A DNA stretch of 64,000 nucleotides from Candidatus Pyrohabitans jungbluthii (lineage in GTDB: Archaea; Hydrothermarchaeota; Hydrothermarchaeia; Hydrothermarchaeales; BMS3B), in assembly GCA_002010065.2 (NCBI GenBank), contig MTMD02000014.1, positions 124,001 through 188,000 on the forward strand, in the 5' to 3' direction. Position 1 is the first letter of the stretch. Each line of letters begins with the position of its first letter. A program made the position numbers and the translations under genes. The notes beneath the pieces are model-generated. The model saw only the letters and a list, made by a program, of their open reading frames with translations. It ran no database searches and was not told where the DNA came from. Shown here piece by piece: positions 22,603 through 26,849 of the stretch.

Positions 22603-22837
22603 TTAGCTTCGCTCCACACTCGCTGCAGAATTTGAAGAATGGCTCATTTTTGGCACCGCACCTTCTGCAGGTTATCGGGCGAACAAGCTCAAAGGCGTCG
22701 CACTCTCGAGCACGCATATCCCGTGACAGGGCGCAGAACATGCTCAGCTCTGCACCATTGAAGTTCCACTTTACTATTAAATTGGAGCAGAAGATGCACT
22801 TGCTTGTGACCTGGGCTATGTCGCGGAGGTTTGTCAT
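22598..22837 (-). CDS. Small double zinc-ribbon protein
   Basis: 79 aa with two metal-binding knots: CIFCSN in the N-terminal half and a classic C-terminal zinc ribbon CRRCGAKNEPFFKFCSECG. An extra Cys pair (FCALSRDMRARECD) lies between. It is probably nucleic-acid- or protein-binding; no specific function can be assigned. Its start codon shares one base with the stop of the upstream radical SAM gene, so the two are translationally coupled and may work together. Confidence 0.7.
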   Translation of the reverse strand: MTNLRDIAQVTSKCIFCSNLIVKWNFNGAELSMFCALSRDMRARECDAFELVRPITCRRCGAKNEPFFKFCSECGAKLR

Positions 22838-23952
22838 TACTTCTCCTTCTTCTGGAGATTTTTAAGTACTTTTTCCACATACTCTGCAACCGCCTCTTCT
22901 ACGCGTGGCTTAAAGTACTCCAGCCTCTCCTTCGCTTCTTTGGATATCTCTGGCGCGCTGTGTGTGAACACCACGCGGGGGTCACGCTCTGGCTCAAGCG
23001 CTTTGCTACCTTGGAGCACATCAACGTCGCTGAAGGTTCCCAGAAGCTCTCTCCCCGCGTGCCTCACCTCTTCCTCCACTTTTCTGCCGTGGCGGGTGCC
23101 GAACATGGAGAAGAGGGGGAACTTTGTTATCCCGTTCGCACCCGCGAGGAGCGCAACGCCTATGTTGGGGAGCTGGTCCACCCAGGTGCCTGAGATTATC
23201 TTCACCTCAGGGAAGCTTATTCTCACCGCTGCTATCACCCCTGCCTGGTACAGCGAGGCTGGCGGGGGAGAGTTTTCATAGCGCGTGCCCCTGTGGGGGT
23301 TGAGGGAGTAGATGGTAACCCTGTCCAACTTCAGCTCCTGAATTAGCTCAAGAAGCGTGTAGGTGTCGGCTACGCTCTCCCCCAGACCCAGGATTATCGT
23401 AATCCCTGTTGCATAGCCCATCTCCTTCGCTGTAATAAGCATGCGCTTTATTGGAGCTAGAGGTTTGCCAGGCACAATCTCGCTGCGAAGCTTCTTGCTC
23501 ACGCATTCCACGCTTCCAGTTACACCTTCCACCGCTCTGCCGAGCTGCTCAAGCTCTTCGCCGCTGAGCACACCCACATTGAGCCACACCTTAGACTGCG
23601 CTGCATAGGCTACCATCTCCGCAAGAAGGCGCAACTCTTCTAATGTATAAGCGCCGTACCCTCCTGAGAGGAACTCCACCTCCCAGCCGAGCCTGCGCAT
23701 AAGCTCCGCCTCAGCGAGGATTCGCCAGGGTGCGCGCTTCGCCTTTTCAGCCTCCCTCAGCCTTTCTTTCTGCTTCGCCATGTAGCAGAAGGCACAGCTT
23801 GCGACGGAGCACCACCAGGAGAGGAAGATTGCCCTCTCCAGGGTGACGTAGCTGCCGTGGTGTTTTAGCGTTAGCGCATTCGCCTCTGCCAGCGCCTCGA
23901 GTAAGTGCTCAGAATCGCTGAAAAGCTGGGAGACCTCTTTCGGGGTGAGCAT
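22837..23952 (-). CDS. Radical SAM protein, BioB-like
   Basis: 371 aa radical SAM enzyme. The cluster cysteines are Cys48, Cys53 and Cys56 (WWCSVASCAFC, a CX4CX2C spacing). SAM-binding features follow: FLSGGYGAYTLEEL (GGE-like), GSVECVSKKL and GITIILGLGESVADT. The C-terminal part (IISGTWVDQLPNIGVALLAGANGITKF) is like the BATS region of BioB-type enzymes. The exact reaction is unknown. The gene is coupled to a zinc-ribbon gene. The mobile cassette at 23992-26255 now separates it from cbiT, with which it was probably contiguous before. Confidence 0.8.
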   Translation of the reverse strand: MLTPKEVSQLFSDSEHLLEALAEANALTLKHHGSYVTLERAIFLSWWCSVASCAFCYMAKQKERLREAEKAKRAPWRILAEAELMRRLGWEVEFLSGGYGAYTLEELRLLAEMVAYAAQSKVWLNVGVLSGEELEQLGRAVEGVTGSVECVSKKLRSEIVPGKPLAPIKRMLITAKEMGYATGITIILGLGESVADTYTLLELIQELKLDRVTIYSLNPHRGTRYENSPPPASLYQAGVIAAVRISFPEVKIISGTWVDQLPNIGVALLAGANGITKFPLFSMFGTRHGRKVEEEVRHAGRELLGTFSDVDVLQGSKALEPERDPRVVFTHSAPEISKEAKERLEYFKPRVEEAVAEYVEKVLKNLQKKEK

Positions 23953-23991: not shown

Positions 23992-24003
23992 TCATCTCCA
24001 GCC
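23992..24003 (+). repeat. Left 12-bp direct repeat of the cassette
   Basis: TCATCTCCAGCC, identical to 26244-26255. It lies at the point where base composition drops, 39 bp upstream of the radical SAM start codon. Reading the minus strand gives GGCTGGAGATGA, a copy of the cbiT 3' end. It may be a target-site duplication or an attachment site. Confidence 0.65.
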
Positions 24004-24004
24004 A

Positions 24005-24015
24005 TCCAGTCATAA
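24005..24015 (+). repeat. Left 11-bp inverted repeat of the cassette
   Basis: TCCAGTCATAA, the exact reverse complement of 26230-26240. It begins 1 bp inside the left direct repeat, where a transposon-like terminal inverted repeat would be expected. It is short for a terminal repeat. Confidence 0.6.
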
Positions 24016-24078
24016 AGATATAAATATCCAAAAATATTATAAAAGTGTCTACACCGTAATATTCATAAGGCGATAAAA

Positions 24079-25458
24079 ATGAAAGTAATTGAAAATCTTG
24101 AAGTAAGAAATTATAGAGGTATTAAAAATATTTCCTTCAAATCAAATTCTGTAAATATATTGGTTGGAAGAAATAACACAGGAAAATCGGCATTATTAGA
24201 ATCAATAGCATTTATATTGTCATTTAACAAAAAATTTAAGGATTCAATAGGAAATGACCTATTGGATTATATAACCGAAAAATATGAGGAATCGTATTTG
24301 GTGAATATAAATGGCAAAACTGCAGAAATTAAAGCAGAGATTAAAGATAAAGAGTACACTATTTCCATTGAATATTATTCTGATGGTCTGCCACAGGATG
24401 AAAGACTGAATTATATAATAGAGTATTTTGAAAATTTAATAAATAGGTGGTATCGCAATTACATTGAAAAGGAGGAAAGATATACTGAGAATATCACCAA
24501 TGACGTAATTAATACTTTTTTTAATGAACTAAAAAATATAAATTTAAAATTAAAACAATCAGATCTAAAAATTTTGGAAAACAATATCAAGAATAGATTA
24601 TTAAGAAAAAAAATTTTTAGAACTATGGATAGATATATAGAATCTGAAATACAAACTGAGTTAGATAAAGTTAAATCGCAAACGCAAAAAGATATCTACA
24701 ATTTGCCAAAATTGATTATCACTGCTTATGAAAATTCACAAATAGTAGGATTGTATATACTTTTTGCAGAATCATTAGATTTAATAGAAAAATTTGAAAA
24801 TATTAGGTCAAAAAAAGTAATTACGCTATTTTCATTCCTATCCAAATATAAATATTTTGAAATAGATGATGAATATGAAATAATTCCATTTAAAGGTGAT
24901 TTAAAGCATATTCCTCTACTTTTTGATTTTGAAAGGGTTACATATGATATAGAAGATTTACATGATTCTGTGGTAGAAACAGGAAAAATTAGGCGTGCAG
25001 TAGATTTACTCAAAGAGAGAGATATTATTGATGATATTAGAAAAACTGAGAGAGGTCTTATGGTATTTCCGAAACAATATGATGAGCCATTGCCTCTATC
25101 TTCAATGGGTGATGGTTTCTTAGCGTTGCTTAAAATCATATTTTTAATTGCTATAGCTGAGAGAGGAGTAATTTTAATAGAAGAACCAGAAGTGTCTCTT
25201 CACCCGGGATATTTAGATATAATTGCTGAAGAAATTGTATTAAATTCTGATAAAGTACAATTTTTTATATCTACCCACAGCTTTGATTTAATTCAGGCTA
25301 TTTTAGAAAAGGCTGAAAAATATAAAAAGCTGGATGAAATAAATATAGTAAGACTCCATTATAGAGAAGCTGCAAATCAGATTTATCCTGAAGTCTTGGA
25401 TGGGGAGATGGCTAAGGAAGAAATTGATGAGATAGGAACAGATCTGAGGCAAACATAA
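24079..25458 (+). CDS. OLD/AAA15-type ATPase, probable defence component
   Basis: 459-aa ABC-like ATPase of the OLD/AAA15 group. Walker A is GRNNTGKS (30-37) after the LEVRNYRGIKNISF start typical of RecF/OLD proteins. A ~270-residue coiled, lysine-rich insertion follows. The signature region is LPLSSMGDGFLALL (338-351), Walker B is GVILIEEPEVSLHP (363-376) and the H-loop is ISTHS (His400). It lacks the TOPRIM domain that class 1 OLD proteins carry at the C-terminus; a separate TOPRIM-like protein is encoded 22 bp downstream. A likely TATA box (ATATAAATAT) lies near 24017. Very A+T-rich. A role in anti-phage defence is inferred from the family. Confidence 0.85.
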   Translation: MKVIENLEVRNYRGIKNISFKSNSVNILVGRNNTGKSALLESIAFILSFNKKFKDSIGNDLLDYITEKYEESYLVNINGKTAEIKAEIKDKEYTISIEYYSDGLPQDERLNYIIEYFENLINRWYRNYIEKEERYTENITNDVINTFFNELKNINLKLKQSDLKILENNIKNRLLRKKIFRTMDRYIESEIQTELDKVKSQTQKDIYNLPKLIITAYENSQIVGLYILFAESLDLIEKFENIRSKKVITLFSFLSKYKYFEIDDEYEIIPFKGDLKHIPLLFDFERVTYDIEDLHDSVVETGKIRRAVDLLKERDIIDDIRKTERGLMVFPKQYDEPLPLSSMGDGFLALLKIIFLIAIAERGVILIEEPEVSLHPGYLDIIAEEIVLNSDKVQFFISTHSFDLIQAILEKAEKYKKLDEINIVRLHYREAANQIYPEVLDGEMAKEEIDEIGTDLRQT

Positions 25459-25480
25459 TATTTAAGAGGGGGAAATATTA

Positions 25481-26188
25481 ATGAAGATATTCGTATTAGA
25501 GGGTCCTAATGACGTAGTTTTTATAGAATCGATTTTAAATCATCACTTTAAAAAAACAAATATACCAAAAGCCTCTAATAATAAAATAAATTTACGAAAA
25601 AGTATAAAAACGCTGATGAGTAAACTTAGAGACTCTAAAGAGTATAATTATCTTAAAAACGAATTTGGAATAATTATTTACGGTGACAACGGTAAGGATA
25701 ACGTAATCTCAAAAGTTATACCCAGATTATGTTATGATTTAATAGGAAAAAATCCTCCAAAACAAATTGAATTTCTTGTAGTCTTAGATGAGGATGGCGA
25801 ACCACTTAGTAATATAATGGTCAGAATTAAAGAGGAGATTATTAATAGGAATATGCCAGATTCGGAAGTATTAGATATAAATAGTAGTAACATCAAAGTT
25901 CAATTCAATTCTGATGACAGTTATTGGATTTATATTCGAGTGTGTTTAATTCCTCATAGTTTGGAATATCAGATTATACATAAAGCAATTGAAACAAAAA
26001 TATCATTAAGCAAAAGACAACAAAGAAAACTACTAAACAGCAAAGAAGATGAGGCATTAAGAGAAATTGCAAATTTACTGGATGTTTCAAAGGAAGAATT
26101 GTTCCGACTTAGTGTTTTTGATGGTTGGTTTCTTGGTAGCGAATGGTACGACGGGATAATTCAGAAAATCGGAAATTTTATTAGTTAA
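25481..26188 (+). CDS. TOPRIM-like protein (DUF3226-like) paired with the ATPase
   Basis: 235 aa. It shows the three TOPRIM landmarks: VLEGPNDVVF (Glu7, Gly8, Asp11), IIYGDNGKDN (Asp69 region) and VVLDEDGE (Asp103-x-Asp105). These fit a metal-dependent nuclease or regulator domain of the DUF3226/OLD-nuclease kind. The C-terminal half (RQQRKLLNSKEDEALREIA, SEWYDGIIQKIGNF) is helical and unassigned. The start follows a GAGGGGG site. It is in the same transcript as the ATPase and shares its A+T-rich codon use. The pair resembles a split OLD or PARIS-like (AriA/AriB) arrangement, though not an exact match. Confidence 0.7.
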   Translation: MKIFVLEGPNDVVFIESILNHHFKKTNIPKASNNKINLRKSIKTLMSKLRDSKEYNYLKNEFGIIIYGDNGKDNVISKVIPRLCYDLIGKNPPKQIEFLVVLDEDGEPLSNIMVRIKEEIINRNMPDSEVLDINSSNIKVQFNSDDSYWIYIRVCLIPHSLEYQIIHKAIETKISLSKRQQRKLLNSKEDEALREIANLLDVSKEELFRLSVFDGWFLGSEWYDGIIQKIGNFIS

Positions 26189-26229
26189 CTTACGATTATT
26201 TCTTTTTTTATGTTGTTTTAAGCTAATTA

Positions 26230-26240
26230 TTATGACTGGA
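26230..26240 (-). repeat. Right 11-bp inverted repeat of the cassette
   Basis: TTATGACTGGA, the exact reverse complement of 24005-24015. It lies 42 bp after the TOPRIM gene, behind a T-rich run (26200-26218) that could end the cassette transcript, and 3 bp inside the right direct repeat. Confidence 0.6.
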
Positions 26241-26243
26241 AGA

Positions 26244-26255
26244 TCATCTCCAGCC
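26244..26255 (+). repeat. Right 12-bp direct repeat, the 3' end of cbiT
   Basis: TCATCTCCAGCC, identical to 23992-24003. On the minus strand it encodes the final Gly-Trp-Arg-stop of cbiT, so the host gene keeps an intact end. This is how elements that integrate at gene 3' ends behave. Confidence 0.65.
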
Positions 26256-26849
26256 GGTGATAATAAAAACAGGATTCATTGCCTTCATCATTGTAACGCC
26301 CTCGCGCACCTTCTCGGCTCTTGCAAAGCTGGCAAGCACCACCTCCTGCTCAAAGTTCGCTGCCTCGAGGGCAGCGCACGCTTTATGGAGCGTCTCCAGG
26401 GTTATCGCAGTTATCACCACTCGGCCCCCAGGATGCAGCTTTTTTGCTATTGCTTCGATTATCTCCTCCATCCTGCCCCCGCTTCCGCCTATAAACACCC
26501 TGTGTGGCGCCTCGAGGTTGCGCAGTGCCTCGGGAGCCTCGCCCTCAACTACGCGCGCCTCCCCGTCACCAGGCACCGCATTGCTGGCAACCACGCCGAA
26601 CTTCGCCAGGTTTCGCCTCAGAAGCTCCAACGCTTCCCCACGCTTCTCCACAGCGTAAACCCTCGCCCCGAGCAGAGCCGCCTCAACGGTAACGCTACCC
26701 GTGCCCGCGCCTATGTCGTAGAGCACGTCACCGCGACAAAGCCTGAGCTTCGCCAAAGCTAAGCTGCGCACCTCCTCCTTGGTCATGGGCACATTGCCGC
26801 GCTCGAATGCTTCGTCGGGTATTCCCGGCACTGTACGCTTCATTCCCAC
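26244..26849 (-). CDS. cbiT: Cobalt-precorrin-6B C15-methyltransferase (decarboxylating)
   Basis: CbiT methylates C15 and decarboxylates the acetate chain during cobalamin ring synthesis. The 201-aa protein opens with PGIPDEAFERGNVPMTKEEV, the standard archaeal CbiT start. It has the methyltransferase motif LYDIGAGTGSVTVEAALLG and the family block RVFIGGSGGRMEEIIEAI. The last three codons and stop fall in the cassette direct repeat. It overlaps cbiE by 10 bp, so the two genes are co-translated; in many organisms they are fused as CobL. Confidence 0.96.
   Translation of the reverse strand: MGMKRTVPGIPDEAFERGNVPMTKEEVRSLALAKLRLCRGDVLYDIGAGTGSVTVEAALLGARVYAVEKRGEALELLRRNLAKFGVVASNAVPGDGEARVVEGEAPEALRNLEAPHRVFIGGSGGRMEEIIEAIAKKLHPGGRVVITAITLETLHKACAALEAANFEQEVVLASFARAEKVREGVTMMKAMNPVFIITGWR

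What the first reader, a model, noticed from the sequence alone, without database searches (positions are those of the whole stretch)
23992..26255. Mobile-looking cassette with ordered direct and inverted end repeats, inserted at the 3' end of cbiT
The sequence shows a sharp A+T-rich block holding two genes. A 12-bp perfect direct repeat (TCATCTCCAGCC) flanks it, and an 11-bp perfect inverted repeat (TCCAGTCATAA / TTATGACTGGA) lies just inside. The right direct repeat is the Gly-Trp-Arg-stop end of cbiT; the left copy lies in the radical SAM gene's upstream region. Chance matches of this length, order and place are unlikely. No recombinase is present, so the unit would have to move in trans or be captured by a host recombinase. 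I do not know of a described element with this architecture.
Basis: partly seen in the sequence, partly recalled or inferred. Interest (0 to 1): 0.82.

Follow-up and report, generated by a model that had tools for sequence, protein, structure and literature searches.

The report
Precisely inserted recombinase-free defence-gene cassette
A foreign 2.2-kb block carrying two probable anti-virus genes (an OLD-like ATPase and a TOPRIM nuclease) has been inserted base-precisely behind the vitamin-B12 gene cbiT of an archaeon; the empty site survives in its nearest relatives, and because the block carries no enzyme of its own to move it, something else must have put it there.

Summary
A 12-bp direct repeat (23992-24003, 26244-26255) and an 11-bp inverted repeat (24005-24015, 26230-26240) bound a 28%-GC block in 55%-GC DNA. 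The block (24004-26243, 2,240 bp) is therefore a precise insertion.

Its two genes are an AAA_15/OLD-like ATPase and a DUF3226/OLD-like TOPRIM protein, the PDC-M38 type of candidate anti-phage pair, which sits in many archaea at unrelated places.

No recombinase lies inside. The inverted repeat is paired nowhere else in 23 genomes of the phylum, and no close relative was found in viral contigs, phages or plasmids. In a circle the 12-mer would lie between inverted arms (11/11), which sit 1 and 3 bp from the repeats. That fits integration of a ~2.25-kb circle by a recombinase in trans somewhat better than a transposase target duplication, but does not settle it.

Verdict: a real, non-autonomous mobile cassette, moved by an unidentified enzyme; a new variant of a known kind, known from one copy.

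The parts
23992..24003 (+). left copy of the 12-bp direct repeat TCATCTCCAGCC
   Evidence: single copy in the empty site of G001-G004
24004..26243 (+). the insert: 2,240-bp AT-rich block absent from four congeners
   Evidence: empty-site comparison with G001 (L014); composition
24005..24015 (+). left arm of the 11-bp inverted repeat, TCCAGTCATAA
24079..25458 (+). gene 1, 459 aa: AAA_15/AAA_21, OLD-like ABC-type ATPase (PDC-M38A type)
25481..26188 (+). gene 2, 235 aa: divergent DUF3226/OLD-like TOPRIM protein (EGxxD and D103 conserved); PDC-M38B-type partner
26230..26240 (+). right arm of the inverted repeat, TTATGACTGGA
26244..26255 (+). right copy of the 12-bp direct repeat; also the last three codons and stop of cbiT (minus strand)
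26244..26849 (-). cbiT-like methyltransferase gene of the cobalamin cluster; its 3' end is the target
   Evidence: methyltransferase; neighbour of the radical SAM gene in G001-G004
22837..23952 (-). radical SAM gene, downstream neighbour of cbiT in the four congeners

Best explanation
SHOWN: the 2,240-bp block 24004-26243 was inserted precisely between the stop codon of cbiT and the next gene of the same strand, with one extra copy of a 12-bp target sequence. It carries an OLD-like ATPase gene and a TOPRIM gene, and no recombinase. INFERRED, function: the pair works as a two-protein ATPase-nuclease of the OLD/PDC-M38 type against viruses or plasmids. INFERRED, movement: it arrived as a circle of about 2.25 kb (or as part of a larger one, later reduced) whose recombination site is a 12-bp core between 11-bp inverted arms (TTATGACTGGA-AGA-TCATCTCCAGCC-A-TCCAGTCATAA). 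A tyrosine or serine recombinase supplied in trans crossed this site with the matching 12-mer at the end of cbiT, which restored the gene.
For: Empty site exact to the base in G001, with single 12-mers in G002-G004; the site in G001 lies well inside a 29.7-kb contig. The inverted arms are centred within 1 bp of the middle of the 12-mer in the predicted circle: 11/11 with a 16-bp middle, or 12/13 if extended inwards (sequence read directly). The arms lie 3 and 1 bp from the direct repeats: natural if the 12-mer is a shared core, awkward if it is a staggered-cut duplication. The target is a gene 3' end that is restored. No Cas1 in the genome. A serine recombinase (resolvase plus PF07508 domains, 286 aa) is resident in the genome. 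Gene identities. Related pairs lie at unrelated places in other archaea, including two Methanoperedens-type contigs with about 80% identical cassette DNA and different neighbours.
Against: Only one copy is known, so the ends are not defined by comparison of copies. A 16-bp middle is longer than usual for a tyrosine-recombinase core. The inverted arms are not evident in the empty site. The only clear tyrosine integrase of the genome belongs to a provirus with an unrelated 20-bp att. The serine recombinase lacks the zinc-ribbon part of large serine integrases (read from its sequence) and no sites like these lie near it. A circle was never observed.
Confidence: 0.48

Rival explanations
1. Mobile insertion cassette: two passenger genes between ends recognised by the DDE transposase of an insertion sequence, moved in trans, with a 12-bp target-site duplication (length typical of the IS4 family).
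For: Inverted repeats just inside a direct repeat; 12-bp duplication shown by the empty site. IS4-family subgroups IS231 and IS4 make 10-12 and 10-13 bp repeats, and MIC231 is a known natural case (PMC2266710).
Against: The arms lie 1 and 3 bp from the repeats, not at equal distance. The tabulated IS4 subgroup ends (CAT..., CA..., -AATR...) are not found on both ends. No insertion sequence with these ends was found: the 11-mer is paired nowhere else in the genome or phylum.
Confidence: 0.33
2. Chance integration: a circle or fragment carrying the gene pair joined at a 12-bp microhomology by host repair or homologous recombination; the inverted repeat belongs to something else (for example a regulatory site).
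For: The structure of the direct repeats is the same as for any single crossover between short homologies. No other copy in the phylum and no recombinase among the block's ORFs.
Against: Inverted arms of 11 bp symmetrically placed around the 12-mer are very unlikely by chance (my estimate, not a tool result: roughly 4e-5 for an 11-bp match within 5 bp of both edges at this composition).
Confidence: 0.12
3. Remnant of a casposon, of a provirus or of a larger integrated element that lost its recombinase and other genes by internal deletion.
For: Casposons make target duplications with a median of 15 bp and some target gene 3' ends (PMC4046053). Integrases often restore gene 3' ends (general knowledge).
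Against: Casposon inverted repeats are at least 25 nt; no Cas1 in the genome; only two intact genes with short spacers inside.
Confidence: 0.07

Closest known systems
Mobile insertion cassettes (MIC231 and similar, IS4-family derivatives)
   Same: Passenger genes between inverted repeats, flanked by a 10-13 bp direct repeat, no transposase inside, movement in trans
   Different: Ends not symmetrical to the direct repeats; no IS with the same ends found; archaeal host; cargo is a candidate defence pair
Integron gene cassettes
   Same: Recombinase-free small unit that would move as a circle and insert by a recombinase in trans
   Different: Two genes, no integron integrase recognised in the genome; inserted behind a housekeeping gene
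Elements integrated at gene 3' ends by site-specific integrases
   Same: A short repeat identical to the gene's 3' end flanks the insert, and the gene is restored
   Different: No integrase; 2.2 kb only; protein-coding target
PDC-M38 / OLD-like ATPase + TOPRIM pairs (DUF3226, PH0156)
   Same: Gene order, ATPase followed directly by a TOPRIM protein; ATPase matches PDC-M38A, relatives of gene 2 match PDC-M38B, DUF3226 and OLD-like TOPRIM
   Different: Gene 2 itself is below the curated cut-offs; function untested
PARIS (AriA/AriB)
   Same: AAA_15-type ATPase with a TOPRIM partner
   Different: The ATPase matches AriA models only as it matches the general AAA_15 family; gene 2 does not match AriB

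Membership tests
Mobile insertion cassette (MIC) | passenger genes without transposase | tested here: met
   two ORFs, ATPase and TOPRIM
Mobile insertion cassette (MIC) | direct target repeat of the length made by the cognate family | tested here: inconclusive
   12 bp, one copy in the empty site; within the IS4 range, but the cognate family is unknown
Mobile insertion cassette (MIC) | ends shared with an autonomous insertion sequence | tested here: not met
   no paired 11-mer elsewhere in 23 genomes; the element's DNA not found elsewhere there. An IS outside these genomes is not excluded
Casposon | Cas1 (and PolB) encoded | tested here: not met
   no Cas1 in the genome; two genes only
Integron cassette | integron integrase with attI in the genome | tested here: inconclusive
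   only two tyrosine-recombinase matches, one a provirus integrase and one below the cut-off inside a DEAD-box helicase ORF; attI not searched
Integron cassette | attC hairpin site | not tested
   no attC model was run; the Rfam scan gave no match
PDC-M38-type pair | A-type ATPase | tested here: met
   PDC-M38A is the best PADLOC match, E=1.5e-29
PDC-M38-type pair | B-type TOPRIM partner directly downstream | tested here: inconclusive
   5 of 17 aligned family members match PDC-M38B, gene 2 itself does not; DUF3226 E=0.008; profile of the family matches PH0156 at 1.7e-15 and the model's nearest PDB entry is 2p62
PDC-M38-type pair | anti-virus activity | not testable with these tools
   needs experiment
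PARIS | AriB (DUF4435) partner | tested here: not met
   no AriB match of gene 2 or of its relatives

The most novel reading that the evidence does not exclude
Archaea possess a class of minimal, recombinase-free circular defence cassettes (one gene pair plus a recombination site) that are slotted into the 3' ends of genes inside operons by a resident recombinase, and OLD-like ATPase/TOPRIM pairs travel as such cassettes.
Probability: 0.12. Interest if true: 0.82.

Novelty: new variant of a known kind. Interest (0 to 1): 0.5.

Why it matters
It is a base-precise, recent gain (or loss) of a two-gene candidate defence system in an archaeal lineage, with the empty site preserved. This makes a concrete question testable: how do small defence gene pairs move when they carry no mobility gene? 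If the circle model holds, it would be an archaeal counterpart of integron cassettes for defence genes. If the transposase model holds, it is a defence-carrying mobile insertion cassette. Either is of interest to people who study defence islands.

Tried and rejected
Single 11-mers in C6 and C8 and at six places in relatives were looked at: unpaired, so chance. A 46-bp match of the right end in G020 turned out to be the intergenic region and start (ATGACTGGA) of an unrelated gene. The provirus integrase on C6 was considered as the mover: its att is a 20-mer at tRNA-His, unrelated. Resident casposase rejected. The attP-like pattern in viral contigs: none. Close relatives in viral contigs, phages, plasmids: none usable. 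The repeat ends of 15 other ATPase/TOPRIM loci do not share these repeats and are about at chance level. The other copies of the 12-mer (C14:1932, C15:135835) were read only as 75-bp windows and a GC profile: no inverted-repeat arm there. An AT-rich block inside the provirus has no such ends. Papers on PDC-M38: none held.

Full report
WHAT IS THERE. Between cbiT (minus strand, stop at 26244) and a radical SAM gene (minus strand, start 23952) lies a block of 28% GC in 55% GC surroundings. It is bounded by TCATCTCCAGCC twice (23992-24003, 26244-26255) and, just inside, by TCCAGTCATAA / TTATGACTGGA. Sixty 12-mer pairs at 0.5-4 kb exist in the window, many of them overlapping, so the repeat alone is weak evidence. 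Shuffles of the two end regions give a 99% point of 10 against 12 and 11 observed.

THE EMPTY SITE. Four genomes of the same genus keep the radical SAM gene and cbiT side by side. In G001, whose two flanking proteins are 93% identical, the DNA reads ...AAAAAGCTGTTTGT-TCATCTCCAGCC-GGTGATAATAAAAACAGG..., which is the left flank of the window, one 12-mer, and the right flank, with no base missing or extra. G002-G004 have a shorter leader but the same single 12-mer as the end of cbiT. The G001 site lies inside a 29.7-kb contig, so a contig end is not the cause. The insert is thus 24004-26243, 2,240 bp. Insertion in the window's lineage is the simple reading; a precise loss in four congeners is possible but less simple.

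THE CARGO. Gene 1 (459 aa) is an AAA_15/AAA_21 ATPase (Pfam E=1e-26), best PADLOC match PDC-M38A (1.5e-29); by profile its nearest solved relatives are an OLD endonuclease and PtuA. Gene 2 (235 aa) is divergent: DUF3226 at E=0.008. A family alignment with the genes that follow gene 1-like ATPases elsewhere shows the TOPRIM signature (E7, G8, D11, D103). Members match DUF3226, OLD-like TOPRIM and PDC-M38B. The family profile hits PH0156 (2p62, 1.7e-15), and the AlphaFold model (mean pLDDT 86) has 2p62 as its only PDB match below E=0.001 (TM about 0.5). So the cargo is a split OLD-like ATPase-nuclease pair, a candidate defence system. The role is inferred; note that an OLD-family ATPase of an archaeon has been reported to act in the cell cycle rather than in defence (abstract of PMC12796447).

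WHERE RELATIVES OF THE PAIR LIVE. One scan of genomes and a table of neighbours show the same two-gene order in Thermoplasmata (L064, the closest, 41% identity), Methanoperedenaceae, GoM-Arc1, Thermococci, Thermoproteota and others. Three cases bear on mobility. L065 and L067 carry about 80% identical cassette DNA with different neighbours. In G021, of the same class as the window's genome, the pair sits between genes for the beta and gamma subunits of a 2-oxoacid oxidoreductase (named from their sequences); in congeners of the window's genome the first gene overlaps the start of the second by about ten bases, whereas in G021 the TOPRIM gene supplies that overlap, and GGATAAAAA stands at both junctions. 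That repeat is at chance level by itself. In Thermococci the pair sits between wtpB-like and wtpC-like genes. None of 15 further loci shares the window's repeats. So the gene pair is mobile on the evolutionary scale, but a common way of moving is not shown.

HOW IT MOVED. The block holds no recombinase. Two models fit the anatomy. (a) Site-specific integration of a circle: joining the ends gives TTATGACTGGA-AGATCATCTCCAGCCA-TCCAGTCATAA, a 12-mer core centred within 1 bp between perfect 11-bp inverted arms (12/13 if extended). Arms at 3 and 1 bp from the repeats are natural here, and the target is a gene 3' end that is restored. (b) A DDE transposase acting in trans with a 12-bp target duplication, as in MIC231; IS4-family subgroups make 10-13 bp repeats (PMC2266710). 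The unequal offsets and the lack of any insertion sequence with such ends speak against (b), though the IS could be outside the genomes searched. I give (a) about 0.48 and (b) about 0.33. A casposase is unlikely: no Cas1 in the genome, and casposon inverted repeats are at least 25 nt (PMC4046053).

WHO COULD HAVE MOVED IT. The genome has one clear tyrosine integrase, in a ~38.8-kb provirus at tRNA-His with an unrelated 20-bp att, and one two-domain serine recombinase whose relatives are 78-86% identical in three genomes of the family; PF00239 matches of any kind occur in 16 of 23 genomes of the phylum. Neither has sites like these nearby. The mover is unidentified.

LIMITS. One copy only; no whole-genome scan for insertion sequences; genome-contig, metagenome and genome searches were capped; the genomes are fragmentary, probably metagenome-assembled. 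The other genomic copies of the 12-mer were read only in short windows. The chance figure for the inverted repeat given under the rivals is my estimate, not a tool result.

VERDICT. Observation confirmed, precise insertion shown, mobility strongly supported, mechanism open. New variant of a known kind; interest 0.5.

Noticed in passing
G000 C6:36303-75086 (L166-L168): A head-tail provirus of about 38.8 kb at tRNA-His, with a 20-bp direct repeat AGGGCCACGGCCGAGATTTG at both ends and a 402-aa tyrosine integrase.
   Followed up: partly
G000 C6:60806-62967: Three AT-rich (0.31-0.33 GC) genes on the opposite strand inside the tail genes of that provirus; no flanking repeats found.
   Followed up: partly
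L170:877-2316 (G000 C8:68073): A compact serine recombinase (resolvase plus PF07508, no zinc ribbon seen), 78-86% identical within the family, beside a winged-helix gene that is only 35-47% identical in the same genomes.
   Followed up: partly
L071:5001-6769 (= L044): An ATPase/TOPRIM pair lodged exactly at the korB/korC-type gene overlap of G021; the TOPRIM gene now supplies the overlap, and GGATAAAAA stands at both junctions.
   Followed up: partly
L045, L084, L088: DUF3226-type ATPase/TOPRIM pairs between wtpB-like and wtpC-like transporter genes of Thermococci.
   Followed up: no
L065:4866-6718 and L067:2756-4850: About 80% identical ATPase/TOPRIM cassette DNA with different neighbouring genes in two archaeal contigs (one titled Methanoperedenaceae).
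   Followed up: partly
window:23953-23991: The leader between the radical SAM gene and the 12-mer is about 32 bp longer in the window and G001 than in G002-G004.
   Followed up: no
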